Under the pieces are notes generated by a model. That model was not told the DNA's origin, did not search any database, and saw only the letters and a list, made by a program, of their open reading frames with translations. Of a DNA stretch of 39,866 nt, positions 15,620 through 31,117 are shown piece by piece. Numbering within the stretch: the first letter of the stretch is position 1; every line of letters begins with the position of its first letter. Origin of the DNA: an uncultured Eubacteriales bacterium (GTDB taxonomy: Bacteria; Bacillota; Sulfobacillia; UBA995; UBA9673); assembly GCA_913063835.1 (NCBI GenBank), contig CAJXZV010000009.1:1-39866 (forward strand), written 5' to 3'. A program made the position numbers and the translations under genes.

Positions 15620-16048
15620 GTGCCGAGAGGTGACAGGACGGGACCGGCGGGTTTCGGTCCGATGACCGGTCGCGGCCTCGGGTACTGCGCGGGGAACGTC
15701 GTTCCCGGCTTCATGGTCGGACCCGGCTGGGGCTATGGGCCCGGCTGGGGCCGAGGCTGGAGTCGCGGCCGGGGTCGCTGGTGGGGCCGCGGCCGCGGCG
15801 CCGCTTGGGGCCGCGGGTGGGGCTTTCGTGCAGGCTACTTCGGCCCTTGGGGACCCTGGGCGTCTCCGGGCTGGTACCCCGGTCCGGGCGCCTACCCCGC
15901 GCCCTACCCGACCTACGCGGGCGACCTGCCGTCGGAGGAGGAGGTCCTTAGGCGCGAGGCCGAGGCCCTGAAAGAGCAGCTGGAAGCCGTCGAGGCCCGC
16001 CTGGAAGAAATCAGTCGCGGAGACGACCGTGACGACGATGACGGATAG
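15620..16048 (+). CDS. DUF5320-type Gly/Arg/Trp-rich protein
   Basis: The protein has 142 residues. The N-terminus MPRGDRTGPAGFGPMTGRGL followed by GYC is the signature of DUF5320 proteins (MP--D-TGP-G-GPMTGRG-G-C). A repetitive Gly/Trp/Arg/Tyr segment follows (about 30-105), then a charged coiled-coil (about 105-138: EEEVLRREAEALKEQLEAV). These proteins accompany NifX/Mrp genes in anaerobes, but their function is unknown. GTG 15620 follows GAGGAGGGA. It is the first gene of the operon and overlaps the next gene by 20 bases. Low-complexity composition is normal for the family. Confidence 0.75.
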   Translation: MPRGDRTGPAGFGPMTGRGLGYCAGNVVPGFMVGPGWGYGPGWGRGWSRGRGRWWGRGRGAAWGRGWGFRAGYFGPWGPWASPGWYPGPGAYPAPYPTYAGDLPSEEEVLRREAEALKEQLEAVEARLEEISRGDDRDDDDG

Positions 16049-16943
16049 GGCCGACAGGCGGGTGATCATCTCGGTGGCGAGCGGGAAGGGCGGGACGGGA
16101 AAGACCACCCTCGCGGTCAATCTCGCCCTCGCCCTTTCCGCCTTCCATGATGTCCGGCTTATCGACGCCGACGTCGAGGAGCCCAACGCCCATATCTTCT
16201 TGAGGCCGGACCTCGAGGGAAGCCGCACCGTGGAGTTGCCTGTCCCCGAGGTCGACAAAGACCGCTGCCGCTTCTGCGGCCGGTGCGCCGAGGTCTGCGC
16301 CTACGGGGCCGTCACGGTCATAGCCGACAGCGTTCTCGTGTTCCCCGAACTCTGTCACGGGTGCGGTGGCTGCACCCTGCTCTGCCCGGAGAAGGCCGTG
16401 ACCGAGCGCCCCCGGGCCATCGGCGTCGTCGAGTGGGGCCGGGCCGGTGAGGTCGCCTTCGTCCACGGCCGGCTGAATCCCGGAGAAGCCCTGGTTCCGC
16501 CGGTGACCCGGGCGGTCAAGGAGTTCATCAGGCCCGGCGGGGTCACCATCATCGACGCCCCTCCTGGAACAGCGTGTCCGGCCGTGGCCGCGGTCTCGGG
16601 CAGCGACTACTGTGTCCTGGTCACGGAGCCGACCCCCTTCGGTCTGAATGACCTGGCTCTGGCCGTCGAGATGGTCCGGAAACTCGGCCTCCCGGCCGGC
16701 GTCGTGATCAACCGGTTCGACCTGGGTGACCGACGCGTCGAAGACTACTGCGCCCGGCAGCGCCTTCCGGTCCTCGGGCGTATTCCCTTCGACCGGAAGC
16801 TGGCCGAAGCCTACGCGCGGGGGCGGACGGCCGTGGACGACCTGCCCGGCTGGCGGGACCGGTTCAGCGCCCTCGGCCGGGAGATTCTCGAGAGGGCCTC
16901 CAATGGTCGACGGCCGCGCATCTCGGATGTGAGCGACCCGTGA
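16029..16943 (+). CDS. MinD-superfamily P-loop ATPase with inserted 2[4Fe-4S] ferredoxin
   Basis: The 304-residue protein has a deviant Walker A motif SGKGGTGKTT (18-27) and the MinD-type DADVEEPNAH. It contains an inserted ferredoxin with Cys 80, 83, 86, 90 and Cys 109, 112, 115, 119. The switch segment IIDAPPGTACP confirms the SIMIBI/MinD class. Such ATPases with ferredoxins are thought to help assemble or deliver metal-sulfur clusters and occur in the ORP gene cluster of sulfate reducers. GTG 16029 has GGAG six bases upstream; ATG 16038 is an alternative. It overlaps the next gene by 4 bases and forms a tandem paralogous pair with it. Confidence 0.88.
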   Translation: MTTMTDRADRRVIISVASGKGGTGKTTLAVNLALALSAFHDVRLIDADVEEPNAHIFLRPDLEGSRTVELPVPEVDKDRCRFCGRCAEVCAYGAVTVIADSVLVFPELCHGCGGCTLLCPEKAVTERPRAIGVVEWGRAGEVAFVHGRLNPGEALVPPVTRAVKEFIRPGGVTIIDAPPGTACPAVAAVSGSDYCVLVTEPTPFGLNDLALAVEMVRKLGLPAGVVINRFDLGDRRVEDYCARQRLPVLGRIPFDRKLAEAYARGRTAVDDLPGWRDRFSALGREILERASNGRRPRISDVSDP

Positions 16944-17866
16944 CACAACACCTCAAGCCCGAACGAGCCGGCCTCGACGAGCTCGTCATCATCAGCGGGA
17001 AGGGCGGCACAGGGAAGACCAGCATCGCGGCTTCTCTGGCCGTGCTCGCCCGCGGGACCGCCGTCCTCGCCGACTGTGATGTAGATGCGGCCAACCTCGG
17101 TCTCATCCTCCGGCCGACTGTCCGCGAGGAACACGAATTCATGGCTTCCAAGCTGGCCTTCATCGATCAAGACAAGTGCGAGGGCTGCGGCACGTGTCTT
17201 GAGGTCTGCCGGAGCCACGCCATCGAGGACTCCGGAGGCAGACCGGCGGTCAACGAGTACGCCTGCGAAGGCTGTGGCGTGTGCTTCCATGTGTGCCCTG
17301 CCGGCGCCGTCGAGATGCGGGACGTCGTCTCGGGTCGCTGGTTCGTCTCTGAGACACCCTACGGCCCGCTCGTCCACGCCCGCCTGGGACCCGGGGAGGA
17401 GAACTCGGGCAAGCTGGTCACCCTCGTTCGGCGCAAGGCGGCGGAGATGGCCGAGGCCCAGGGGAAGGACCTCATCATCATCGACGGGCCTCCTGGTATC
17501 GGTTGTCCGGTCATCGCCTGCCTCTCAGGTGCGAGCCGGGCCCTCATCGTCACCGAGCCGACCCTGGCCGGCCTCCACGACATGGAAAGGGTCCTCGAGG
17601 TGTGCCACCACTTCGAGGTGCCGGCTCAGGTCGTCATAAATCGTTTCGACATCGACGAAGCCAACACACGGCGCATAAGGGAACGCTGCTCCGCCCGCGG
17701 AATCGAGGTTGTCGCCCTCATCCCCTTCGACACCGAGGTCACCCGGGCGGCCGTGCGGGGTATGACCATCGTCGAGGCCTCCGACGGCCGGACGGCCCGC
17801 TGTATCCGCGCCCTCTGGGAGAAACTGAATTCAGAAAGACCCGAAGCGACACCAAAAGGACGGTGA
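16940..17866 (+). CDS. Second MinD-superfamily ATPase with inserted ferredoxin
   Basis: The 308-residue paralogue of the preceding gene has Walker A ISGKGGTGKTS (18-28), CDVDAANLGL and two cluster motifs at the same residue numbers (Cys 80, 83, 86, 90; 109, 112, 115, 119). It also has IIIDGPPGIGCPV. The equal placement of the cysteines shows that the pair arose by duplication and probably forms a heterodimer. Its start GTG overlaps the preceding TGA. The expected role is nucleotide-dependent handling of an Fe-S or heterometal cluster together with the Mrp and NifX proteins downstream. Confidence 0.88.
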   Translation: MTQHLKPERAGLDELVIISGKGGTGKTSIAASLAVLARGTAVLADCDVDAANLGLILRPTVREEHEFMASKLAFIDQDKCEGCGTCLEVCRSHAIEDSGGRPAVNEYACEGCGVCFHVCPAGAVEMRDVVSGRWFVSETPYGPLVHARLGPGEENSGKLVTLVRRKAAEMAEAQGKDLIIIDGPPGIGCPVIACLSGASRALIVTEPTLAGLHDMERVLEVCHHFEVPAQVVINRFDIDEANTRRIRERCSARGIEVVALIPFDTEVTRAAVRGMTIVEASDGRTARCIRALWEKLNSERPEATPKGR

Positions 17867-17873
17867 TGGTCTC

Positions 17874-18773
17874 ATGGCCGAAGCCGGCAACCAGACGCAG
17901 ACACCGGTACGTGAACAGGAAGACACCGTGCCCTCCGAGGACGCAGAAAGACAGGGTCGCCCTAAGAAACTCCCGGTCCCGGAGCACAGCCGCATCCAGC
18001 GCGTGGTCGCCGTGATGAGCGGAAAGGGCGGAGTCGGCAAATCGTCCGTTGCGGCACTTCTGGCCGTCGCCCTGTCGAAAGAAGGCTACCGGGTCGGCGT
18101 CCTGGACGCGGATGTGACGGGACCGAGCATCCCCAAGCTCTTCGGAGTCACCGAGCGCGCCGGCGCTCTGGGGTTCGGAATTCTGCCTCCGAGGACGCGG
18201 GGGGGCATCGAGGTGATGTCCCTGAACCTCTTCCTCCCCCACGAGGACGACCCGGTCATCTGGCGCGGCCCCCTCATCTCCAACGCGGTCAAGCAGTTCT
18301 GGACCGACGTCATCTGGGGCGACCTCGACTACCTCGTGGTCGACCTCCCCCCCGGCACGGGAGACGCACCGCTGACCGTCCTCCAGGCCATCCCCCTGGA
18401 CGGCGTGATCATCGTCACTTCCCCTCAAGACCTCGCCGCCATGGTGGTCAAGAAAGCCATCAAGATGGCCCAGGCCTTGGATGTCCCCATACTCGGCCTC
18501 GTCGAGAACATGACTTCCGTCCGCTGTCCCAGTTGCGGCGAGGAGATAAGGGTCTTCGGCCCGAGCCGCGCCCCGGAGATAGAGAGGTCGACAGGGGTCA
18601 GGTCGCTGGGAGAGCTTCCGCTCGACCCGGCCATCTCGGACTACGGTGACCGCGGGGAGATCGAGAAGTACGAGGTCGACTTCCTGAAGACCGTCGCCTC
18701 GCTCCTCCCCGTGGAGCGCAGCACGTCAGACGCAAAGCGTCGAGAAAGCGACAAGGAGGTGCCGAAGACATGA
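17874..18773 (+). CDS. Mrp/Nbp35-family Fe-S carrier ATPase (ApbC-like)
   Basis: The 299-residue protein has MSGKGGVGKSS (48-58), GVLDADVTGPSIPKLFG and the Mrp hallmark VVDLPPGTGDAPLTV. It also has VENMTSVRCPSCGEE with Cys218 and Cys221. That CxxC binds a bridging [4Fe-4S] cluster across the dimer in the Mrp/Nbp35 family, which transfers Fe-S clusters to target proteins. The first 38 residues are a polar, probably disordered leader. It starts eight bases after the previous gene and overlaps the next by 4 bases, so it is tightly coupled to the NifX-like genes. Confidence 0.92.
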   Translation: MAEAGNQTQTPVREQEDTVPSEDAERQGRPKKLPVPEHSRIQRVVAVMSGKGGVGKSSVAALLAVALSKEGYRVGVLDADVTGPSIPKLFGVTERAGALGFGILPPRTRGGIEVMSLNLFLPHEDDPVIWRGPLISNAVKQFWTDVIWGDLDYLVVDLPPGTGDAPLTVLQAIPLDGVIIVTSPQDLAAMVVKKAIKMAQALDVPILGLVENMTSVRCPSCGEEIRVFGPSRAPEIERSTGVRSLGELPLDPAISDYGDRGEIEKYEVDFLKTVASLLPVERSTSDAKRRESDKEVPKT

Positions 18774-19174
18774 AGGTGGCCGTATCGTCGCAAGGTCCCG
18801 ACCTGGAATCCCCGGTCGACCCGAGGTTCGGCCGGTGCGCCTACTTCATCATCGTCGACCCGGAGACCCGCGAGTACGAGGCGGTGGCCAACCCGGGGGT
18901 CCAGGCGGCGCACGGTGTAGGGACACAGGCCGCCCAGGTCGTGGGAAGCCGCGGGGTCGGGGCCGTCATCACCGGGAACATCGGCCCGAACCCGATGCGA
19001 GCCCTCTCCGCCGCAGGCATCGAGGTCTACGCCGGAGCCGGTGGGACCGTGGCCCAAGCCCTGGACGCCTATGTCAGCGGGAACCTTACCAAGGTCTCGT
19101 CGCCGACCGTCGCGACCCACTCCGGTCTCGGGCGTGGAGGCGGCGGGGGCCGCCGCCGGTTCAGCACCTCCTGA
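18770..19174 (+). CDS. NifX/NafY-like (dinitrogenase Fe-Mo cofactor biosynthesis) protein
   Basis: The protein has 134 residues. VDPRFGRCAYFIIVD, AAQVVGSRGVGAVITGNIGP, and AGGTVAQALDAYVSG mark the Nitro_FeMo-Co domain (about 1-110). The fold is RNase-H-like and carries metal-sulfur clusters, as NifX, NifB C-terminus and ORP do. The C-terminal 20 residues are Gly/Arg rich. No nitrogenase gene is present, so a role in nitrogen fixation is not implied. The start overlaps the Mrp gene. Confidence 0.88.
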   Translation: MKVAVSSQGPDLESPVDPRFGRCAYFIIVDPETREYEAVANPGVQAAHGVGTQAAQVVGSRGVGAVITGNIGPNPMRALSAAGIEVYAGAGGTVAQALDAYVSGNLTKVSSPTVATHSGLGRGGGGGRRRFSTS

Positions 19175-19212
19175 CCGGCGGACCCTGATTCGAGCGCTTG
19201 GAGGGATCATTC

Positions 19213-19614
19213 ATGAAGATTGCCGTAGCCACGGACGGCGCGGTAGTCGCCGCCCACTTCGGCCGCTGCCCCGCCTACACGACTTTCGTCGTCGAAGACG
19301 GTGAGATCGTCAACAGGCTTGTCGTCCCCAACCCCGGCCACGAGCCGGGCCGGCTCCCCCGCTACCTCGCCGACCTCGGGGTCGACGTCATCGTCGCCGG
19401 CGGGATGGGAAGGAGAGCCCAGGCCCTTTTCGCCCAGCAGGGCATCGAGACCGTCGTCGGGGCCAGCGGCCCGGTGGACGAGGTCGTCCGAGCCTTCCTG
19501 GCCGGCCGGCTCGAGACGGGACCGAGTCTTTGTGACCACGGCCCGCCGGCCGAAGGTGCCTGCTCCCACCCTGGCGGCCACCGCTGCCGGGAGAACCACG
19601 GAACGGGAGGCTGA
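19213..19614 (+). CDS. Second NifX-like protein with Cys/His-rich tail
   Basis: The protein has 133 residues. KIAVATDGAVVAAHFGRCPA, then VDVIVAGGMGRRAQALFAQQ and IETVVGASGPVDEVVRAFLA define the Nitro_FeMo-Co domain (1-105). The tail, with Cys and His in LCDHGPPAEGACSHPGGHRC, looks like a metal-binding extension absent from the first copy. ATG 19213 has GGAGGG upstream; TTG 19198 is an unlikely alternative. With the first copy it probably gives two cluster carriers or a carrier and an acceptor. Confidence 0.86.
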   Translation: MKIAVATDGAVVAAHFGRCPAYTTFVVEDGEIVNRLVVPNPGHEPGRLPRYLADLGVDVIVAGGMGRRAQALFAQQGIETVVGASGPVDEVVRAFLAGRLETGPSLCDHGPPAEGACSHPGGHRCRENHGTGG

Positions 19615-19853: not shown

Positions 19854-19963
19854 CAGGGGCGAAGGGACCTCTTGACTGGGCATAGAACACAAGGGACACA
19901 CCACAACCGCAGGCAGCCGTGTGAGCCCCCGAGGCGATGACCACGGCACCGGGAGGAATGGGA

Positions 19964-20407
19964 TTGCCTCGGCCACGCAAACCCCGCTTCGTCGAGTTTC
20001 TCCCCGACGTGACCTACTTCAAGCCCGCCGGGGTCCCGATGGCCGCTCTCGACGAGGTGCGCCTCGGAGTGGACGAACTCGAGGCCCTGCGCCTCAAGGA
20101 CCTCGAAGGGCTCGACCAGGAGGAGTGCGCCAGGCGCATGAACCTGGCCCAGAGCACCTTCCAGCGCCTGCTGGCCGGCGCGCGCGAGAAGCTCACGCGC
20201 GGGATTGTCCAAGGCAAGGCCATCCGCATCGAGGGCGGCGACTACCGCTTCGTCGCCCGCACCTTTTTCTGCCCGGAATGCGGCAGCCGCTGGAGACGTG
20301 AGGCGCCGCCTCCACCGGAGGCCCCTGAGACCTGTCCTGCCTGCGGGAACCCTGACATCACCCCCCGCTGGCGGGGAGGGCGGCGACACCGGCGGAGGGG
20401 ACGCTGA
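19964..20407 (+). CDS. DUF134-family DNA-binding protein with zinc ribbon
   Basis: The protein has 147 residues. [40 protein letters not shown], and [20 protein letters not shown] identify DUF134. These proteins carry a sigma-70 region 4-like helix-turn-helix (about 52-75). A zinc ribbon follows with Cys 103, 106, 124 and 127. TTG 19964 fits the family start (MPRPRKP) and has GGAGG seven bases upstream; ATG 19937 and ATG 19958 are in frame. As the last gene of the operon it is the best candidate for its regulator, possibly acting at the palindrome near 15511. The basic tail may aid DNA binding. Confidence 0.82.
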
Positions 20408-21326: not shown

Positions 21327-24300
21327 CTAGGTCGCGACCCCTCTCAACACGGCCTCCACCGACGCCCTCATCTGGTCGTCCCGGTAGCACGGCAAGGTTA
21401 TGGCGTGACCGGGGCACTCGGCCGCACAGGTCCCGCACCCGCGGCACTGGACAGGATCGATCTCGGCCACACCCCGCTCGTTTATGGCCGGCACGCCGAA
21501 CGGGCAGACCCGGACGCAGGTGAGGCAGGCGGCACACTTCGTCTCCTCGACCGTGGCCACGATGCCCCCGGCCATGAGGGATTCCTTGGCCAGGATGGTG
21601 GCCGCTCTGGCCGCCGCTCCCTGGGCCTGCAGGAGGGTCTCGCCTATGGTCTTGGGAGCGTGCGCCCCCCCGCAGAGGAAGACCCCCTGTGTTGTGAGGT
21701 CCATCGGCGCCAGCTTGGCGTGGGTCTCGACGAAGAAGCCGTCTTCGTTCAGTCCCACCTTCAGACGGTTGGCCAGCGCCGCCGCCCCCTCGGACGGGAC
21801 GACACCCACGGAGAGGACGACCAGGTCGACCGGAAGGTGGATGTCGGACGCGAGGTCGCTGTCGGCCACGGTCACGAGCGGCCGGCCGTCGGACGCCTCG
21901 GAGATGACCGGGGGCCGCCCGTCGCCGCGCCTGATGAAGACGACCCCCGCCTCACGCGCCCGCCGGTAGGCGTCCTCGCGGAAGCCGTAGGTCCTGACGT
22001 CGCGGTGGATGATGAAGACCTCGGCCTCGGGGTTCCGCTCCTTGATGAGCAGGGCGTCCTTGATTGCCTGCGAGCAGCACGTCCTTGAGCAGTAGTTCGC
22101 CGGCCGGTCCTCGCCCCGCGAGCCCACGCACTGGACGAAGACCACCCGGCCGAGAGTCTCGAGCCATCCCTCGCCTTCCTCGCAGAGTCTTCTCTCGAAA
22201 TCGAGGCGCGTGATGACGGCCGGGTTCTTCCCGTAGAGAGGGTAGGGGCCGGGGGTGGGGCGGTAGGCCTCGTGGCCCGTCGCCACGATGAGGACCCCGT
22301 GCTCCACGGTGAGGCCCTCCTCTCCGGAGCCGCCCGGACCCACGCCGCGGACCTCGCCGCCGGCGCCGTCTCCCGCCGTCGCCGCCGGCCTCAGCCTCGA
22401 GGTGAAGTGGCCGGCATGACCTGAGAACTCAGCGAGTTCATAGCCCGTCAGGACGGTTATGAGCGGGTCGGCCTCGACGCGCCCGACCAGGCTGTCTGAC
22501 AGCGCCCGGACGTCAGCCACCTCCAGGGTCGAGTGAAGGTGCCTTAGGTTGCCCCCGAGGCGGCCTTCCCGCTCGACGAGCGTCACCGGGAAGCCGGCCC
22601 CGGCCAGGGAGAGGGCCGCGGCGAGGCCCGCCGGCCCGCCTCCGAGCACGAGGGCCCGGTTGACAACCGGGACGGGGAACATCGTCAGGGGCTCCAGGAG
22701 ACGGGCCTTGGCCACCGCGGCCGCGACGAGCTCCTTGGCCTTGGCCGTCGCCGCCGCCTTGGAGCCTTTGTGGACCCAGGAGCACTCCTCCCTGATGTTC
22801 ACCATGTGGAAGAGGAACTGGTTGAGCCCGGCTTCACGCATCATCTCGCGGAAGAGGGGACCGTGAGTCCTGACCGTGCACGAGGCGACCACGACCCGGT
22901 TGAGGCGGTGCTTTGCGATGAGCTCCTTGATGGCCCCGATGGAGTCCTGCGAGCACGTGTAGAGGAACTCTTCGGCGCACACCACCCCGGGTAGGGCCCT
23001 GACGGCCTCCACCACGGCCGGGACGTCGACGACCGAGGCGATGTTGATCCCGCACCGGCAGACGATGACCCCGACGCGGGGCTCCTCCCCGCTGACGTCC
23101 CGCTCGGGCGGGAAGGTCTTCGTCCGGGCCAGGGTCCCCCGGGCCAGGGCCAGGAGCCCCCCGGCCGCTCCGGCGGCGGCGCTGCCGCTCATAACCGTCT
23201 CGGGGATGTCCTTCGGGCCCTGGAAGGCCCCGGCCACGAAGACCCCGGGCCGTGTCGTCCGGCACGGGTCGAGACCGGCGAGCCCCTTCCCGACCCCCGA
23301 GGCTCCGGCCCCCGCGGAGGACGGGTGGTCCTGTGGGAGGTCCTCCGCATAGCCGTGCGGCCCGAGGTCGATCCCGGCCGCCTCCGCCAATCTGTCCGCC
23401 TCCTCCGGCGGCCGGAGGCCCGTGGCCAGGACCACGAGGTCGAACTCTTCCTCCGAGACCCGCCCGTCAGGGCCTGTCCAGGTGACGAGCAGATTGCCCG
23501 TGGCGGGGTCCTCCCGCACCGACGAGACGGCCGACCGGCGGAACACGACACCGTACTGCCGACGGGCCGACTCCACGTACCGGTCGAACCCCTTCCCGTG
23601 GGAGCGCAGGTCGATATAGAAGACCGTCGCCTGAACGTCGGGGTCGTGCTCCCTGGCGACGATGGCCTGCTTGGTCGAGAACATGCAGCAGACCGCGGAG
23701 CAGTACGGCTCGTGGGCCAGGTCGCGCGACCCCACGCACTGGATGAAGGCGATCCTCTTCGGGTGCCTTCCGTCACCGGGGCGCTCGAGGACCCCGGCCG
23801 TGGGGCCGGTCGAGCTGAGCATCCGTTCGAACTCGAGAGCGGTGACAACGTTGCGGTAGACGCCGTAGCCGTAGGCGGCCGCCGTCGGGTCGAAGGTGGA
23901 GTAGCCGGGAGCCAGGATGACCGCTCCCACCCTCAGCTCCACCGTCTCGCCCCGGTCGTCGTGGCGCACGGCCCGCTTCTCGCAGACCTTCTCACAGAGA
24001 AGGCACTCCGCGCACACCCCGCAGGCCAGGCACCGCCGGGCCTCGGCCACGGCCTCCTCCCGGCTGAGCCCGAGGCAGACCTCGTCGAAGCTCCGGCGGC
24101 GCGTGGCGGCCTCGAGCTTCCTCAAGCGCACCCGCGGCCTGGGGCTGACGCCCCTCGTGTCGATGTCGAGCTTCCGGACGGGTCCCGTCTCCCCGAAGGC
24201 GACCCGGAACTCCCGGCCCTCACGGAGGTCCATCCCCCGGAGGTAGCGGTGGATGGACTCCGCGGCCTCCTTGCCGGCGGCGACGGCCGCGACCACCGTG

Positions 24301-26039
24301 GCCGGCCCGGTGACCGCGTCCCCCCCGGCGAAGATGCCCTCCCGGTTCGTGGCCAGGGTGTAGGGGTCGACGACAAGGGTGTTCCCGCTCCCGCGCCGGA
24401 GCCCGCTGTCGGCCAGGAAGAGGAGGTCGGGCGCCTGGCTGACGGCGAAGACGACCGAGTCGCACGGCGTCTCGAACTCCGAACCCTCGATAGGGACGGG
24501 CCGCCGGCGGCCGCTCGCGTCCGGCTCGCCCAGCCTGTTCCGGACGGCACGGACACCCGTCACCTTCCCCCTCCCGGTCCCCACAGCCCCGCCGTCCGGC
24601 CCGTCCGCCGGGGCCGCGGCTTCCCCGAGGACCTCCACCGGCGCGGTGAGGTACTCGATGCGGACGCCTTCCTCCAGGGCGTCCTCGACCTCCTCGGGCA
24701 GGGCGGTCATCTCGGTCTCCGAACGGCGGTAGAAGATCGTGACCTCCTCCGCACCGAGCCTGAGGGCCGTGCGGGCGCAGTCCACGGCCGTGTTGCCGCC
24801 GCCGACGACGACGACCCGGCGGCCGACGGGAACCCGCTCACCGAGGTTCACCCGGCGGAGGAAGGAGACCCCGTGGTAGACGCCCTCCAGGTCCTCGCCG
24901 GGGACGCCGACCCGCTGGGGTTCGTGCGCTCCGACACCCAGGAAGACGGCCTTGTAGCCGTCCTCGAAAAGAGAGTCGAGGGACCTGTCGGTGCCTATGG
25001 CGACCCCTGTCCTGATCTCGACCCCTTCTCTGCGGATGAGCTCTATCTCGGCCTCGAGGAGGCGCCGCGGCAGCCGGTATTCGGGGATGCCCACTCTGAG
25101 CATGCCGCCCACGACCGGAAGGGCCTCGAAGACCGTGACGGGGTAGCCGCGGCGTGCGAGATGGTAGGCGCAGGAGAGACCCGCCGGGCCGGAGCCGACG
25201 ACGGCCACCTTCTCCTCCCGGGGGACCTTCTCGTCCCGCAGGGTGTAGGCCGCCGTCCACTCCTTGCGGCCGGCCGGGCCCTCGGGCGCCTCGGGGACGG
25301 AGTCGGCGAGGACGTGCTCGCCGACGAAGCGCTTCAGGCGATGGATGGCCACCGGCTCGTCCACATCGCCTCGCTGGCAGACGTCCTCGCACGGGTGGTG
25401 GCAGACCGTCCCGCAGATGAGCGGGAAGGGGTTGTCCCGGCGGATGACCTCCCAGGCCTCATGGAAGCGCTCCCGGGCGATGAGGGAGACGTAGGCCTGC
25501 ACGTTCACCCCGGCCGGGCAGGCGGTGCGGCAGGGAGACACCCCCCGCTTCTCGATGAGGTACTTGTTCGGGACGGCCTGAGGGAACTGCTTGTAGACGG
25601 CCTTCCGGTCGCTTAGCCCGGCGTTGAAGGCGTCGGGCACCGTGACCGGGCAGACCTCGGCACAGTCCCCGCAGGCCGTGCACTCCTCGAGGTCGATGTA
25701 GCGGGGGGCCTTGTGCACCACGGCGGTGAAGTCGCCCGGCCGTCCCTTGAGTTCCACCAGGGTGGCAAGCGTATGGACGGTGACGTTGGGGTGACCGAAG
25801 ACATCCGTCATCTTCGGGCCCAGAAGACACATCGAACACTCGTTGGTCGGAAAGGTCTTGTCGAGCTGGGCCATGCGGCCGCCCAGCGAAGGGTCCTTGG
25901 TGAGAAGGTGCACCCGGAAGCCGGCCTCCGCAAGGTCGAGCGCGGACTGGACTCCCCCGATGCCTCCTCCGACGACCAAGACGGCGCCGACCGCGTCCGG
26001 GCGCCCTTCCCGGCCGGGACCCAAGGACTCTACAGCCAT
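21327..26039 (-). CDS. Giant HdrA-GltD/NfnB-HdrA fusion oxidoreductase
   Basis: The 1570-residue flavin/Fe-S protein has this order. An HdrA FAD fold (18-75) with NECSMCLLGPKM is followed by cluster Cys 120, 123, 126, 130. An inserted GltD/NfnB-like module follows, with Cys 170, 174, 209, 213, 217, 221, FAD site VVGSGPAGLSCAYHLARRG (280-298) and NAD(P)H site VVVGGGNTAVDCA. Next come a Cys-rich motif (670-686) and the rest of HdrA with IQCVGSRD (767-774). A second HdrA then runs from CRCGIN (994-999), with FAD site VLGGGPAGLAAAL, VQCVGSRG and a final 2[4Fe-4S] ferredoxin (1502-1542). HdrA bifurcates electrons among ferredoxin, NAD(P)H and disulfide partners. Single-copy HdrA is about 650 residues; this is more than twice that. 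ATG 26039 has GGAGG eight bases upstream. No hdrB, hdrC or hydrogenase gene is adjacent, so it may be a self-contained electron-bifurcating hub. Confidence 0.88.
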   Translation of the reverse strand: MAVESLGPGREGRPDAVGAVLVVGGGIGGVQSALDLAEAGFRVHLLTKDPSLGGRMAQLDKTFPTNECSMCLLGPKMTDVFGHPNVTVHTLATLVELKGRPGDFTAVVHKAPRYIDLEECTACGDCAEVCPVTVPDAFNAGLSDRKAVYKQFPQAVPNKYLIEKRGVSPCRTACPAGVNVQAYVSLIARERFHEAWEVIRRDNPFPLICGTVCHHPCEDVCQRGDVDEPVAIHRLKRFVGEHVLADSVPEAPEGPAGRKEWTAAYTLRDEKVPREEKVAVVGSGPAGLSCAYHLARRGYPVTVFEALPVVGGMLRVGIPEYRLPRRLLEAEIELIRREGVEIRTGVAIGTDRSLDSLFEDGYKAVFLGVGAHEPQRVGVPGEDLEGVYHGVSFLRRVNLGERVPVGRRVVVVGGGNTAVDCARTALRLGAEEVTIFYRRSETEMTALPEEVEDALEEGVRIEYLTAPVEVLGEAAAPADGPDGGAVGTGRGKVTGVRAVRNRLGEPDASGRRRPVPIEGSEFETPCDSVVFAVSQAPDLLFLADSGLRRGSGNTLVVDPYTLATNREGIFAGGDAVTGPATVVAAVAAGKEAAESIHRYLRGMDLREGREFRVAFGETGPVRKLDIDTRGVSPRPRVRLRKLEAATRRRSFDEVCLGLSREEAVAEARRCLACGVCAECLLCEKVCEKRAVRHDDRGETVELRVGAVILAPGYSTFDPTAAAYGYGVYRNVVTALEFERMLSSTGPTAGVLERPGDGRHPKRIAFIQCVGSRDLAHEPYCSAVCCMFSTKQAIVAREHDPDVQATVFYIDLRSHGKGFDRYVESARRQYGVVFRRSAVSSVREDPATGNLLVTWTGPDGRVSEEEFDLVVLATGLRPPEEADRLAEAAGIDLGPHGYAEDLPQDHPSSAGAGASGVGKGLAGLDPCRTTRPGVFVAGAFQGPKDIPETVMSGSAAAGAAGGLLALARGTLARTKTFPPERDVSGEEPRVGVIVCRCGINIASVVDVPAVVEAVRALPGVVCAEEFLYTCSQDSIGAIKELIAKHRLNRVVVASCTVRTHGPLFREMMREAGLNQFLFHMVNIREECSWVHKGSKAAATAKAKELVAAAVAKARLLEPLTMFPVPVVNRALVLGGGPAGLAAALSLAGAGFPVTLVEREGRLGGNLRHLHSTLEVADVRALSDSLVGRVEADPLITVLTGYELAEFSGHAGHFTSRLRPAATAGDGAGGEVRGVGPGGSGEEGLTVEHGVLIVATGHEAYRPTPGPYPLYGKNPAVITRLDFERRLCEEGEGWLETLGRVVFVQCVGSRGEDRPANYCSRTCCSQAIKDALLIKERNPEAEVFIIHRDVRTYGFREDAYRRAREAGVVFIRRGDGRPPVISEASDGRPLVTVADSDLASDIHLPVDLVVLSVGVVPSEGAAALANRLKVGLNEDGFFVETHAKLAPMDLTTQGVFLCGGAHAPKTIGETLLQAQGAAARAATILAKESLMAGGIVATVEETKCAACLTCVRVCPFGVPAINERGVAEIDPVQCRGCGTCAAECPGHAITLPCYRDDQMRASVEAVLRGVAT

Positions 26040-26569: not shown

Positions 26570-27985
26570 TTGAGGTGCAAGAACCCGGTCGGCGTAGCCG
26601 TCGTGATCGTGTTGCTGGTGGGTGTCGGTGTCTCGGGCTGTTCGCCCGGGGCCGGCCAGGAGTCGACGACAGACCTTGACCCGATATGGTTCCGGGGGCC
26701 GTACTCCGGCGAGGTCGGGCAGGGCGAGGTCGCATACCGGTGGGCCGTGAGAGACTCCAGCGTCGTGGTCGACGAGGGCACCGCCAGGACTCTCATCCCC
26801 GACTACTCCTTGGGAAACGCGGACTTCCCGTTCGAGACCCCGCTGTCTCTGGTCGAGCCGGACGGGACGCGCCTGGCGCTCCCGTTCGTCGCCGGCGGCT
26901 TCCCGGTGGGCTTCTCGGCCGGCGGGGACAGCTATGCCGTGATGACGTTCGCCCTCACCCTCTCCCCGAAGTGGGGGCAGTTCGGGATTTACAACATGCC
27001 CCTCCTCACCCTCTCGTGGTATGACGCCGACGGCGGACTCATCTACGAAGCCCAGAGGCGTTACCCCGAGACCGCCGAGGATGTCCTGACCATCCTGCTC
27101 CCCGGAGTGTGCCGTCTCGTGGACGGCGGACGGAGACTGCTGGTGGCCTGGCCGCCGGACGGCTGGGAGCCCCAGGCCGGAGAACAGTGGGAGACCCTGC
27201 TCGTCGACAGGTCGGGCACCGCGCTGGTGCTTCACCGCTCGACCAGCCCGCCGGTCGTCTCCGACGACGGGACCCTGCTCCTCTACGTCGCAACCGACGA
27301 CGACGGCAAGGGCTCTCTCATGGCGCTCGGGACCGACGGCCGAACGAGATGGGAGACCACCTTCGAATCGGAGGTGACAGGCGGGCCGTTCGTCTCCTCC
27401 TCCGCCGACCTTGTCGTGGTCTTGACCGACAGCGGGGCCGTGGCCCTCGACCACACCGGCTCCGTCGCTTGGTCGTCCCAAGGCGCCTACCGCACCGCCG
27501 TCGTCGCCGACTCCGGCGATACGGCCCTCTTGGGCAAGGGTTTCGTCGAGTACCGCGGCCCGGACGGAACCCTCATCTGGCAGAGAGACGTGGCCCGGGA
27601 GTGCACCGTGGCCGTCTCGCGCGACGGGCTCTACGTCCTCCTCGCCGAGAACGACCCCTTGACCGACTCGGCGAAGTTCACTCTTCTGGACCGCTCGGGA
27701 AAGGACCTCGCCGGGTATCAAGCCGAGAGTCCACCGGAGAACCCCTGCGTGCCGTTCGTCTGGTTCCGGGAGGACCGTCCCTGCTTCTGCCACGGCTGGG
27801 AGGCGGGGCTCTTCCAGAAAGAGGACGTCGGGTGGGCTCCGGTGACGACCGTCCTCCTGGCCGACTTCGACGTGTCCGGCCCGTACGGGGTAAGCGCCCG
27901 GGCCCTGGCTGACGGGCGTTACCTTCTCGTGCACGTCGACGACCGGAACCTCGTCCTCTACGATGTGGAGGACATCGTGCCGTAG
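26570..27985 (+). CDS. Secreted lipoprotein with beta-propeller-like repeats
   Basis: The 471-residue protein has a signal peptide (about 1-23) and lipobox VSGC (Cys24), so it is membrane-anchored and exposed outside the cytoplasm. The remainder contains recurring beta-strand blades ending in D-G/S-G patterns, such as LLVDRSGTALVLHR, MALGTDGRTRWETTFE, VALDHTGSVAWSSQ and TLLDRSGKDLAGY. This resembles PQQ/WD40-like propellers. No catalytic residues are recognisable; it may bind ligands or scaffold other proteins. TTG 26570 follows GAGGAGG. It ends inside the 3' end of the convergent TPR/MutL-like gene (28-base overlap). Confidence 0.65.
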   Translation: MRCKNPVGVAVVIVLLVGVGVSGCSPGAGQESTTDLDPIWFRGPYSGEVGQGEVAYRWAVRDSSVVVDEGTARTLIPDYSLGNADFPFETPLSLVEPDGTRLALPFVAGGFPVGFSAGGDSYAVMTFALTLSPKWGQFGIYNMPLLTLSWYDADGGLIYEAQRRYPETAEDVLTILLPGVCRLVDGGRRLLVAWPPDGWEPQAGEQWETLLVDRSGTALVLHRSTSPPVVSDDGTLLLYVATDDDGKGSLMALGTDGRTRWETTFESEVTGGPFVSSSADLVVVLTDSGAVALDHTGSVAWSSQGAYRTAVVADSGDTALLGKGFVEYRGPDGTLIWQRDVARECTVAVSRDGLYVLLAENDPLTDSAKFTLLDRSGKDLAGYQAESPPENPCVPFVWFREDRPCFCHGWEAGLFQKEDVGWAPVTTVLLADFDVSGPYGVSARALADGRYLLVHVDDRNLVLYDVEDIVP

Positions 27986-30336
27986 GCCGCCTCCGGCCCG
28001 CTCCGGCCGACGACCTCCGAGGCCCAGGCGGCCCTGAGGGTGGTGCGGGCCTGCCGGTCGTCGGGCAGTCGGAGCGGCCGCCCCCGGCCGTCCAGAAGGA
28101 GGCCCAGCCCTCCGGCGAGGAACTCCCCTCTCCATTCGACGCCCCGGCCCCGGCCGACGCTGTAGGGAGGTGCGGGCCGGACGATGAGCTCGATGCGCCT
28201 GCCGGCCGGGAGAGGGACCCACCGGAGCTCCCCCCGGCAGAGGTCCCAGGTGCGTTCGCCGTCCCGCCAGGCACCCTTCACCGAGACCCTGAGCACGAGC
28301 TTGCGCCCGGGCCGGCCCCACTTGACCGCCTGCACGAGAGGAGCCACGCAGAGACAGCTCCCCGCCAGGAGGGCCGCCGTGCCGTCGGTCCAGGACGAGT
28401 CGCCGGGTCGGAGCCGCCCGGTGCGGGCGCCGTCCCCCAGGGCGGCGGTGATGCCGTAGGGGTCGAGCAGGACCCGGGTGATCCCCACCGGCTGGCATCC
28501 GTCAACCGCCGCAAGGAGGGCGTGTTCGGCGCTCGGCAGGCGCGAGACCAGACTCCCGCCGACAAGGAGGTGACTGGACCTTATGCCGGTGAGTGTCTCC
28601 GCCAGGACGGCCTGACGCAGGCCGAACACGGCCCGCTGGAGCACCCCTGACACCACCCCGGCGGCCACCAGGGCCTCCGCGTCCCCCAGCTCGTCTCCGG
28701 CAGCCCCTTCACCGAGAAGCCTGCCCACGAGCAGCGCGGTGTCGCCCGGAGGCAGGACATGCGGGACCTCGTCGAAGAGCTCGTCCAGAAGCCGCCCCCG
28801 CAGGCTGCCTTCCGGCCCGAAGGTGAAGCCCTGCACCTCGCCGTCCCTCACCGCAAGGGCCTCGACGGCCTCAGGCTCAGCCGCAAGGGTCACGAGGTCG
28901 TAAGGAGGACGACGGCCGATGTGCCGCCTCTCGCCGCTGTCGAGCCACTTCAGCACAGGAGCGAGACCGACGGCCCCGCGGGCGAGAGCGCCCCGGACGG
29001 CGGGAGTCCCGTCGCGCCGCTCCTTCACCCGCTCCTCGATGAAGGCCACCGTCGCCTCCAGGCCGTCCCGAGCCCGGCTGGGCTCGGCCTGTTCCTCCTC
29101 TGCTGCGTCCGCCTCGTCTTCCGCCTCCGGGGCGGGCGGGCGGATGTCAGGCACGCTCGTGAAGCTGAGGCCGTCGAAGATGACCCTGAGGTCCGGCAGC
29201 ATGTCCTCAGGCCCGTTGTACAGGAACTGGACCGGGCCGGCCCGTGACCTCAGCCGGCCCGCCCGCGCCCGCTCCGCCAGCGAGGCGCAGAACTCGGCCG
29301 TGACCCCGGAGGCCAGGACGACGATGTCAGGCTCCTCGTCCTCCACCCCGGCGGACTGTCCCGCCACACCGACAAGACGGCCCCCACCGAGGTAGACGGC
29401 CATCCGGCTCCGGACGACCCCCTCGCTGACGGGGTCGTCCGCGGCTACGAGGACCCTCAACTCCCTCTCCCGCCCGCCGGACAGGCCCAGGACTCCCATG
29501 GGGGCGTCCGTCCGGGGCTCCACGCCGTCAACCCCTTCCGGCGGCCGGGCCTCGCCGTCCGCCACCCTCCGACCACCGCCGGGCCACGCCGGCACCCACG
29601 AGGGTCCCCAGCGCGGCAGGCGCTCGAAGCCCGGAGCCGGCCGCACCGCCTCCCTTCTCCCCAACCTCTGGCGGAGACGGGCGATGTGCCGTCTGGCCTC
29701 CCCGGCCAGAGGGTCGTCCCGGGGCAGGGCCTTCCTGACGGCCAGCCAGTGGGCCAGGGCCTCACGCAGCCGCCCGACGGCTTCCAGCTCACCCGCGACC
29801 GAGACGTGGGCGGGCACCAGGCCCGGGTCCAGGTCCGTGGCCGCCTCCCAAGCGGCTATGGCCTCCTCACGGTCTCCGCTCGCCGCGAGGGCCTCGGCCC
29901 TCAGCATCTGCACCCAGGGGTCACCGCCCCCCTCCGACAGGTCCCCCTCCTCGAGGATGGCCAGGGCCTCGAACGGGTTCCCGCCGAGGTGCTGGTCGAG
30001 GGCCCGGCCGAAGAACCAGACCGGGTCGGAGACCTCGGGGCCGGCCACGTCCTGCTCCATCTCGCAGAAGTCGATGAGCTCCCAGAGACAGCCGAGGAAA
30101 GACCAGACCGCCTCGTAGTGCCGGTGAAGAGGAGACGGCCGGCCCCTCTCGGCCGGCGGGAGGGCCAGGGCCATGTCGCGGATGTCGCGGGCGGCGGCCA
30201 CGGCGGCCCTGGCCAGGGTGAAGGCGGCGCGGATGGAGCGGTTCAGACGGGCCGGGTCCTCCGGGTTCTCGCTCAGGTCCTCGTCTCTCTCGAGGTAGTG
30301 ACGCACGGCTCTTCGCACGTGGTCGCGCGCGTCCAA
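27958..30336 (-). CDS. TPR protein with C-terminal MutL-like (glutamate mutase activator) ASKHA domain
   Basis: The 792-residue protein has an N-terminal helical region with TPR-like repeats (about 110-215: DPWVQMLRAEALAASGDREE, AWEAATDLDPGLVPAHVSVA). A linker rich in Pro/Arg follows. The C-terminal half resembles MutL/GlmL: PDIVVLASG (336-344), LLVGGSLVSRLPSAEHAL, RVLLDPYGITAALG and the long-form ending VGRGRGVEWRGEFLAGGLGL with LLLDGRGRPLRLP. MutL reactivates or protects adenosylcobalamin mutases. The usual DVGGATTD phosphate-binding motif is not recognisable (YDLVTLAAEPEAVEAL in its place), so ATP binding is doubtful. TTG 30336 has a perfect AGGAGGT six bases upstream. The open frame up to 30753 covers a promoter and is not coding. 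No mutase gene is visible. Confidence 0.55.
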   Translation of the reverse strand: MDARDHVRRAVRHYLERDEDLSENPEDPARLNRSIRAAFTLARAAVAAARDIRDMALALPPAERGRPSPLHRHYEAVWSFLGCLWELIDFCEMEQDVAGPEVSDPVWFFGRALDQHLGGNPFEALAILEEGDLSEGGGDPWVQMLRAEALAASGDREEAIAAWEAATDLDPGLVPAHVSVAGELEAVGRLREALAHWLAVRKALPRDDPLAGEARRHIARLRQRLGRREAVRPAPGFERLPRWGPSWVPAWPGGGRRVADGEARPPEGVDGVEPRTDAPMGVLGLSGGRERELRVLVAADDPVSEGVVRSRMAVYLGGGRLVGVAGQSAGVEDEEPDIVVLASGVTAEFCASLAERARAGRLRSRAGPVQFLYNGPEDMLPDLRVIFDGLSFTSVPDIRPPAPEAEDEADAAEEEQAEPSRARDGLEATVAFIEERVKERRDGTPAVRGALARGAVGLAPVLKWLDSGERRHIGRRPPYDLVTLAAEPEAVEALAVRDGEVQGFTFGPEGSLRGRLLDELFDEVPHVLPPGDTALLVGRLLGEGAAGDELGDAEALVAAGVVSGVLQRAVFGLRQAVLAETLTGIRSSHLLVGGSLVSRLPSAEHALLAAVDGCQPVGITRVLLDPYGITAALGDGARTGRLRPGDSSWTDGTAALLAGSCLCVAPLVQAVKWGRPGRKLVLRVSVKGAWRDGERTWDLCRGELRWVPLPAGRRIELIVRPAPPYSVGRGRGVEWRGEFLAGGLGLLLDGRGRPLRLPDDRQARTTLRAAWASEVVGRSGPEAAYGTMSSTS

Positions 30337-30583
30337 CGGTGACCTCCTCCCCGTCACTCGGTACTCGGCGGCCGACTGGTTCTCCCGGCCGCCGGACGTG
30401 TCCTGTCTCGGCGGCCGTCCGGCGTTCGACACGGTCCGGCGCCAAATCCGGCCCGCCGAGGCTCTGGAGGCAGAGGGCATGTCGAGCAGACGGGACCCGA
30501 CGGAGAAGACGTCAGATACCGAAAGAATTCGCTTCAGCCGGACGACACCGAGCGCCACACCGCCGCCGGCAGGTCTGGAAGGG

Positions 30584-30612
30584 TTGACCTTTACGTAAAC
30601 GTAAGGTAGCAT
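30584..30612 (+). promoter_or_regulatory. MerR-type promoter/operator (LiuR-like box)
   Basis: TTGACC (30584-30589) and TAGCAT (30607-30612) are separated by 17 bases. The spacer is filled by the partly palindromic CCTTTACGTAAACGTAAGG (30588-30606). Operators between the -35 and -10 boxes are typical of MerR regulators. This one closely resembles LiuR boxes that control acyl-CoA and branched-chain amino acid catabolism. It should control the MerR gene and the acyl-CoA dehydrogenase behind it. The gene-free stretch 30337-30673 holds this site only. Confidence 0.75.
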
Positions 30613-30676
30613 AGGCGGTAGGGTCAACCAAACGGATGGTAGACCGCGCCCGGGACCTTCCGGTGCCTCCGGGGTG

Positions 30677-31117
30677 ATGGATTTGACCGAAGGCGATGAC
30701 CGCACCTGGACCATCTCCGAGATATCGTCCGAGTTCGGGGTCACTCCGCGCACCCTGCGCTACTACGAAGAACTCGGCCTGCTCTCCCCTGACCGCTCCC
30801 GGGACAACGGACAGCGCCTGTACAGCCGACGGGACCGGGCCCGCCTGAAGCTCGTCCTGCGCGGACGGCGTTTCGGCTTCTCCCTCAAGGACCTCAAGGA
30901 GCTCCTCGACCTGTACGACACAGACCCCACACGCAAGGAGCAGATACGCCGCACCCTTGAGATAGGAGCCAAGCGCATAGAGGAGATAGACGAGATGATC
31001 CGGGAACTCCAGGTCCACCGCCAGGAACTCCTGGACTACCGCGACCGGCTCGTGAGGTTCCTCGAAGGCAAGGCTACCGCCGAGGAACTCGACCTTCCCC
31101 TCGACGATACGGAATGA
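30677..31117 (+). CDS. MerR-family regulator (LiuR-like)
   Basis: This protein of about 146 residues has a winged helix (WTISEISSEFGVTPRTLRYY, EELGLLSPDRSRDNGQRLYS; about 10-50) and RRDRARLKLVLRGRRFGFSL. A long antiparallel coiled-coil (about 80-135) then forms the dimer. There are no Cys clusters as in metal-sensing MerR proteins, which suggests an organic ligand such as an acyl-CoA. It is divergent from the MutL-like gene and 27 bases ahead of the acyl-CoA dehydrogenase, with a LiuR-type box in its own promoter. This fits autoregulation and control of acyl-CoA oxidation. GTG 30674 directly before ATG 30677 is an alternative start. Confidence 0.85.
   Translation: MDLTEGDDRTWTISEISSEFGVTPRTLRYYEELGLLSPDRSRDNGQRLYSRRDRARLKLVLRGRRFGFSLKDLKELLDLYDTDPTRKEQIRRTLEIGAKRIEEIDEMIRELQVHRQELLDYRDRLVRFLEGKATAEELDLPLDDTE

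What the first reader, a model, noticed from the sequence alone, without database searches (positions are those of the whole stretch)
21327..26039. HdrA-GltD/NfnB-HdrA triple fusion in one 1570-residue protein
Two HdrA modules are permuted around an inserted NAD(P)H/FAD unit. The chain carries three likely FAD sites and at least five [4Fe-4S] motifs. One chain could receive electrons from NAD(P)H and split them to ferredoxin and a low-potential acceptor without the usual Hdr/Mvh partners. The insertion lies between the first cluster motif and the rest of HdrA, which is an unusual architecture.
Basis: partly seen in the sequence, partly recalled or inferred. Interest (0 to 1): 0.75.

Follow-up and report, generated by a model that had tools for sequence, protein, structure and literature searches.

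The report
Solitary NADPH-type copy of Moorella-like HdrA
This very large bacterial enzyme subunit has a domain layout already published for the energy-saving methylene-THF reductase of Moorella, but this copy belongs to a previously undescribed stand-alone branch whose sequence predicts that it takes its electrons from NADPH instead of NADH.

Summary
The 1570-aa ORF (21327-26039, minus strand) is a real, intact gene. It has two HdrA modules, with a GltD unit inserted inside the ferredoxin domain of the first. It is not an assembly chimera: full-length homologs of 45-81% identity occur in many Bacillota, including closed genomes. The architecture is not new. It is the published layout of Moorella thermoacetica HdrA (PMC9430772), and my 1487-aa homologs L092-L095 share that protein's published residue numbers (E696/K750, E1204/K1246). 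Related fusions are HdrL (2009) and archaeal 'type III HdrA' (2022-2025).

What appears new is which member this is. Most homologs lie in hdrC-hdrB-hdrA-mvhD-metV-metF clusters. The window copy and 10 others, from 9 genomes, have no such neighbours and form one clade (bootstrap 87, motif columns excluded). The own genome also encodes the operon copy, split over contigs C117/C139/C59. All 21 operon-clade copies carry a C/S-L/V-E NAD motif, and Moorella HdrA oxidises NADH. The window copy and 8 other solitary copies carry the Y-R-R motif of NADPH-binding NfnB, StnC and GltD. K236 matches StnC Lys170, so the GltD flavin is probably the entry site and HdrA FAD the splitter.

NADPH use and partners supplied in trans are inferred, not shown.

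The parts
21327..26039 (-). Whole gene: HdrA(-GltD insert-)HdrA fusion, 1570 aa, solitary paralog
   Evidence: full-length homologs
25710..25988 (-). First HdrA module, TrxR-N part a (res. 18-110): FAD motif GGGIGG at 24; C71 = Cys197 equivalent at 25827-25829
   Evidence: Aligned to 5odc_A 145-240; C71 invariant in 43 homologs
25542..25709 (-). Inserted ferredoxin domain, first cluster half (res. 111-166; C120, C123, C126, C130)
   Evidence: invariant in 43 homologs
25254..25541 (-). GltD Fe-S subdomain (Fer4_20, res. 167-262); K236 (25332-25334) aligned with StnC Lys170
   Evidence: Pfam PF14691; alignments; K in 42 of 43 homologs; StnC role PMC10482914
24225..25253 (-). GltD FAD + NAD(P)H domain (res. 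263-605): FAD motif GSGPAG 282; NAD(P) motif GGGNTA 413; R322 = NfnB R187
   Evidence: Pfam PF07992, NCBIfam NF009410 over cut-off; PDB NfnA/NfnB/StnC matches
24723..24728 (-). R438-R439, the 'YRR' Arg pair predicted to hold the NADPH 2'-phosphate
   Evidence: Same motif in NADPH enzymes of known structure; Arg pair contacts the NADP phosphate in P. furiosus NfnI (PMC6405883); replaced by L/V-E in 21 of 21 operon-clade homologs
24015..24224 (-). GltD tail (res. 606-675) with C670, C673; corresponds to the N-terminal segment of T. maritima NfnB
   Evidence: Alignment to 4ylf_B res. 9-43
23940..24014 (-). Inserted ferredoxin domain, second cluster half (C676, C679, C682, C686)
23088..23939 (-). 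TrxR-N part b (res. 701-984): bifurcation signature E738/K790 (= E356/K409), cluster C768/C780/C784/C785
   Evidence: E and K invariant in 43 of 43
22665..23087 (-). Second HdrA module, N-terminal Fe-S domain (NTD, res. 985-1125; C994, C996, C1029, C1054), the port to HdrC/B
   Evidence: Aligned to 8rvu_a
21570..22664 (-). TrxR-C (res. 1126-1490): FAD motif GGGPAG 1133, E1282/K1327, cluster C1304/C1317/C1321/C1322; no Cys197 equivalent and no inserted Fd
21327..21569 (-). C-terminal 2x[4Fe-4S] ferredoxin domain (res. 1491-1570), the port to MvhD, and stop codon
   Evidence: Pfam PF13187
20447..21253 (-). DinB-superfamily gene 74 bp downstream, same strand; homologous gene downstream in G002 (L072), not in other orphan families
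   Evidence: Pfam PF12867

Best explanation
The protein is a member of the Moorella-type HdrA family, the flavin-based electron-bifurcating subunit of HdrABC-MvhD-MetVF methylene-THF reductases. It belongs to a solitary paralogous branch that differs from the operon copy mainly at its electron-entry site. Proposed mechanism (inferred): NADPH delivers a hydride to the GltD FAD. Electrons run through the GltD and inserted-ferredoxin [4Fe-4S] clusters to the TrxR FAD(s) carrying the E/K bifurcation signature, which split them. The higher-potential branch leaves through the NTD cluster, built from the C-half NTD plus C71 of the N-half, to HdrC/HdrB-like partners. The C-terminal ferredoxin domain docks an MvhD-like partner. 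Because hdrBC, mvhD and metVF are absent from the locus but present elsewhere in the genome, the likeliest arrangement is an exchangeable NADPH-type HdrA that uses those partners in trans, beside the NADH-type operon copy. Shown computationally: family, architecture, conservation of every cofactor ligand, solitary context, clade, motif switch. Inferred: NADPH preference (about 0.75), GltD as a non-bifurcating entry site (about 0.7), partners in trans (about 0.45).
For: Architecture and residue numbering match published M. thermoacetica HdrA (PMC9430772; L092-L095 E696/K750/E1204/K1246). Full-length homologs occur in closed genomes. HdrC-HdrB-HdrA-MvhD-MetV-MetF order around most homologs. Own operon copy split over C117/C139/C59, and the CODH/ACS marker CdhC is present. 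Eleven solitary copies in 9 genomes, 8 of which also hold a fusion copy with such partners beside it (not found in G001, 81% complete), form one clade, UFBoot 87, inside a UFBoot-100 clade. YRR in 9 of 11 solitary copies against C/S-L/V-E in 21 of 21 operon-clade copies. An Arg pair binds the NADP phosphate in NfnB (PMC6405883). Moorella HdrA oxidises NADH, 190 U/mg. K236 = StnC K170; the StnC FAD is non-bifurcating. All cluster cysteines and first-TrxR E/K are conserved. Docking domains are about as conserved in solitary as in operon copies (NTD 0.66 vs 0.72; C-Fd 0.72 vs 0.68).
Against: No biochemistry on any solitary copy. YRR also occurs in operon-linked sister copies (L101, L110, L098, L109), so NADPH type and solitary context are separate traits. 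The own second solitary copy (C8) has an altered motif (IFKGP) and Ser in place of Lys at the second TrxR. Trans partnering rests on retained domains and genome content only. The AlphaFold attempt was uninformative (pLDDT 46).
Confidence: 0.55

Rival explanations
1. Stand-alone bifurcating enzyme: the chain or its homodimer alone oxidises NADPH and reduces ferredoxin plus a higher-potential small acceptor or quinone, without HdrBC or MvhD.
For: Gene appears to stand alone, with no hdrBC/mvhD/metVF within 6 kb (or to the contig end) in 11 of 11 clade members. Cofactor chain is complete in one polypeptide. NTD in the C-half and Cys197 equivalent in the N-half are complementary, so the chain can be its own dimer partner (logic of PMC9012536).
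Against: NTD (HdrC port) and C-terminal Fd (MvhD port) remain conserved, and HdrBC/MvhD sets exist in the same genome. No acceptor site for a high-potential substrate is visible in the chain.
Confidence: 0.22
2. NfnB-like bifurcation at the GltD FAD, making the chain a transhydrogenase-like enzyme with two kinds of bifurcation site, as suggested for ANME HdrA9-11.
For: Strong similarity of the insert to Nfn large subunits; R322 (NfnB R187) invariant; proposal in PMC9012536.
Against: NfnB's Glu ligand is Lys (K236) in 42 of 43 homologs, as in StnC, whose FAD is non-bifurcating although its equivalent Arg is kept. No NfnA partner gene adjacent.
Confidence: 0.13
3. Redundant or decaying duplicate of the operon hdrA without a distinct role.
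For: Paralog beside an operon copy; some solitary copies lost the K of the second TrxR (L088 S, L075 R).
Against: Intact over class-level divergence (56-62% identity between families), with all cluster ligands and the first-TrxR E/K kept and high GC3.
Confidence: 0.08
4. Assembly chimera.
For: Own genome is a 181-contig assembly.
Against: Same order in dozens of genomes, including single-contig ones.
Confidence: 0.01

Closest known systems
Moorella thermoacetica HdrA of MetFV-HdrABC-MvhD (Mock 2014; domain analysis PMC9430772)
   Same: Identical domain order: TrxR + Fd interrupted by GltD, then NTD + TrxR + C-terminal Fd without inserted Fd; E/K in both TrxR units; similar length (1487 vs 1570 aa).
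   Different: The Moorella copy is in the hdrCBA-mvhD-metVF cluster and oxidises NADH; the Moorella-type NAD motif in L092 is ACLEK. The window copy is solitary and carries FYRRS (NADPH signature).
HdrL1-3 of Desulfobacterium autotrophicum HRM2 (PMC2702500, 2009) and HdrL of Desulfurivibrio dismutans (PMC12142623)
   Same: Named as heterodisulfide reductase/glutamate synthase fusions with an NADH-binding unit.
   Different: Next to mvhD, dsr or fdh genes; some with selenocysteine; sequences not compared here.
Archaeal type III HdrA / HdrA9-11 (PMC12054007, PMC9012536)
   Same: GltD/NfnB insertion of about 500 aa inside the inserted ferredoxin domain.
   Different: Described as one TrxR-type HdrA with a GltD insert; the window protein combines this with a second HdrA module (type II + type III).
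Double HdrA3/HdrA4 of ANME (type II HdrA)
   Same: Two HdrA modules with complementary NTD and Cys197.
   Different: There the NTD-bearing half is first; here it is second. No GltD.
StnC of Sporomusa Stn transhydrogenase (PDB 8oh5, PMC10482914)
   Same: NfnB-like NADPH/FAD module with Lys near the proximal cluster and the YRR motif; feeds electrons to a bifurcating site elsewhere.
   Different: Separate subunit; bifurcating flavin is FMN in StnB, not HdrA FAD.

Membership tests
HdrA (electron-bifurcating flavoprotein subunit) | TrxR-like FAD domain with E356/K409 equivalents | tested here: met
   E738/K790 and E1282/K1327
HdrA (electron-bifurcating flavoprotein subunit) | NTD cluster completed by Cys197 of the partner module | tested here: met
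   NTD Cys in the C-half; C71 only in the N-half; cluster assembly itself not observed
HdrA (electron-bifurcating flavoprotein subunit) | Physical complex with HdrBC | not testable with these tools
   Genes absent from the locus, present in the genome
Moorella-type HdrA (TrxR/Fd[GltD]/NTD/TrxR/Fd) | Exact five-part order | tested here: met
   description
Moorella-type HdrA (TrxR/Fd[GltD]/NTD/TrxR/Fd) | Encoded in hdrCBA-mvhD-metVF cluster | tested here: not met
   No such gene within 6 kb of the window copy; operon copy elsewhere (C117/C139/C59)
Moorella-type HdrA (TrxR/Fd[GltD]/NTD/TrxR/Fd) | NADH-type NAD motif / NADH oxidation | tested here: not met
   YRR instead of C/S-L/V-E; activity not tested
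NfnB (bifurcating transhydrogenase subunit) | Glu ligand to the proximal cluster (Gx2ER) | tested here: not met
   Lys at 236; K in 42 of 43 homologs, E in one
NfnB (bifurcating transhydrogenase subunit) | Arg near FAD N5 (R187 in T. maritima) | tested here: met
   R322, 43 of 43; also kept in non-bifurcating StnC, so not diagnostic
StnC-like NADPH input module | Lys at the K170 position and NADPH Arg pair | tested here: met
   K236, R438/R439
MetVF-Hdr methylene-THF reductase complex | MetVF, MvhD and HdrBC partners for this copy | tested here: inconclusive
   All present in the genome, none linked to this copy

The most novel reading that the evidence does not exclude
A conserved stand-alone branch of Moorella-type HdrA acts as an exchangeable NADPH-specific electron-entry and bifurcation subunit. 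It shares HdrBC/MvhD/MetVF with the NADH-specific operon copy, so one methylene-THF reductase core can run on either nucleotide pool. Alternatively it is a one-gene NADPH-driven bifurcating enzyme with an unknown acceptor.
Probability: 0.4. Interest if true: 0.65.

Novelty: new variant of a known kind. Interest (0 to 1): 0.38.

Why it matters
The second acceptor and electron balance of Hdr-type methylene-THF reductase have been open since 2014. A natural NADH-type and NADPH-type pair of the same three-flavin subunit in one genome, each with a clear motif, would give a controlled comparison of which nucleotide drives the reaction and whether HdrA subunits are exchangeable. It also shows that the gene neighbourhood does not fully define Hdr complexes.

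Tried and rejected
Assembly chimera: rejected by full-length homologs in single-contig genomes. Novel architecture: rejected by PMC9430772. NfnB-type third bifurcation site: disfavoured by K236. A conserved operon partner for the solitary clade was sought and not found; neighbours are conserved only within a family or genus. One Pfam call on neighbours failed from wrong coordinates and was replaced. A TGA reported 'inside' some homologs (G004, G021, G334) was judged to be the normal stop at the C-terminus (ORF ends), not selenocysteine.

Full report
What is there. The ORF at 21327-26039 (minus strand) encodes 1570 aa without an internal stop, with codon-position G+C of 0.71/0.50/0.91 like other genes of this 69% G+C window. 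Pfam, NCBIfam and PDB searches give HdrA (best E about 1e-186 to HdrA of 5odc) and a GltD/NfnB-like flavoprotein (NF009410 above its curated cut-off) in the same chain.

Anatomy. After removing residues 167-675, the N-half aligns over its length with methanogen HdrA 145-568. It has no N-terminal Fe-S domain, but has Cys197 (C71), E356 (E738), K409 (K790), the TrxR cluster and the two-cluster inserted ferredoxin domain. The GltD unit sits between the two clusters of that domain. Its tail (606-675) corresponds to the N-terminal segment of T. maritima NfnB. The C-half (985-1565) has the N-terminal domain, TrxR with E1282/K1327, no Cys197, no inserted ferredoxin, and the C-terminal 2x[4Fe-4S] domain. 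The two halves are thus complementary, the logic described for fused ANME HdrA3/4 (PMC9012536), but in the opposite order. Predicted content is 3 FAD, one NAD(P)H site and about nine [4Fe-4S].

Already known. PMC9430772 describes M. [quoted passage not shown] Homologs of 1487 aa in loci L092-L095 have exactly these residue numbers, which identifies them as the Moorella type. Other fusions of HdrA with GltD/NfnB are HdrL (PMC2702500), HdrA9-11 and type III HdrA. In a 300-genome sample of the phylum, about 45 full-length or nearly full-length copies were found, some in single-contig genomes. So the 'unusual architecture' and 'chimera' concerns are both settled.

Context. In most homologs the order is hdrC-hdrB-hdrA-mvhD-metV-metF. 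The window gene has no such neighbour. Downstream is a DinB-family gene, upstream a divergent gene. The same genome has an operon copy split over contigs C117 (HdrC, HdrB), C139 (HdrA) and C59 (HdrA end, MvhD, MetV, MetF); the joining of these contigs is inferred. It also has two ordinary HdrABC-MvhD sets (C26, C29), a CODH/ACS marker and a second solitary copy on C8. Eleven solitary copies from nine genomes were found. Eight of these genomes also hold a fusion copy with hdr, mvhD or met genes beside it; the ninth (G001) is 81% complete. In G034 these extra copies (L091, L145) have only hdrBC confirmed as neighbours.

Tree. With 56 sequences and the NAD(P)-motif columns removed, the 11 solitary copies form one clade (UFBoot 87), sister to operon-linked copies L101/L110/L098/L109 (UFBoot 100 for the union) and separate from the 21-member operon clade that contains the Moorella-type sequences and the own operon copy. 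A smaller tree gave 42 to 92 for nested versions of the same grouping, so support is moderate.

Nucleotide motif. After the second strand of the NAD(P) fold, the window copy reads FYRRS and 9 of 11 solitary copies have YRR; the exceptions are the C8-type pair (IFKGP/IFRDT). All 21 operon-clade copies have C/S-L/V-E, including Moorella-type ACLEK. PDB relatives with YRR here include Nfn large subunits and StnC. In P. furiosus NfnI two conserved Arg contact the extra phosphate of NADP (PMC6405883). Moorella HdrA has NADH:benzyl viologen activity (190 U/mg). The inference that the window copy prefers NADPH is direct but untested. YRR is also common in other, operon-linked clades, so it may be the ancestral state.

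Which flavin bifurcates. In NfnB a Glu ligates the proximal cluster. In StnC it is Lys170 and the FAD is a non-bifurcating entry flavin (PMC10482914). The window has Lys (K236), as do 42 of 43 homologs. The first TrxR unit keeps E and K in 43 of 43, whereas the second varies (E to T/A/D/K; K to S/R/Q/A in some). This points to the first HdrA FAD as the obligatory bifurcating site, an observation not found in the papers read.

Partners. Domain-wise identity shows that the NTD and C-terminal ferredoxin, the ports to HdrC and MvhD, are about as conserved among solitary copies as among operon copies. With HdrBC and MvhD present elsewhere, use in trans is the favoured reading. Thermacetogenium phaeum offers a precedent for HdrA and HdrBC encoded apart (PMC6895022). 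A self-sufficient enzyme is not excluded.

Verdict. Observation confirmed; architecture already known; the member is a new solitary, probably NADPH-type variant. Interest is moderate because the motif switch between two copies in one genome is specific and testable.

Noticed in passing
window 16029-19614 (+): Cluster of two Fe-S/P-loop ATPases (CbiA with inserted Fer4), an Mrp-like carrier (ApbC/MrpORP-type) and two Nitro_FeMo-Co proteins, followed by a DUF134 gene at 19937-20407: resembles a MrpORP/orange-protein-type cluster.
   Followed up: no
G000:C8:21956-26629 (L088 6944-11647): Second solitary HdrA-GltD-HdrA paralog with altered NAD(P) motif (GGGFTA...IFKGP) and Ser in place of Lys at the second TrxR; ortholog in G002:C61.
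   Followed up: partly
43 aligned homologs: E/K bifurcation signature is invariant in the first TrxR unit but variable in the second, suggesting that only the first is obligatory for bifurcation.
   Followed up: partly
L081-L086, L105, L106, L140-L144: Another context of the same fusion: mvhD followed by two Fe-S proteins (281 and 340 aa) and a NAD_binding_1/DHODB-like protein (281 aa).
   Followed up: no
window 27958-30753 (-): 931-aa protein without Pfam match, conserved near the solitary gene in same-family genomes L001 and L072.
   Followed up: no
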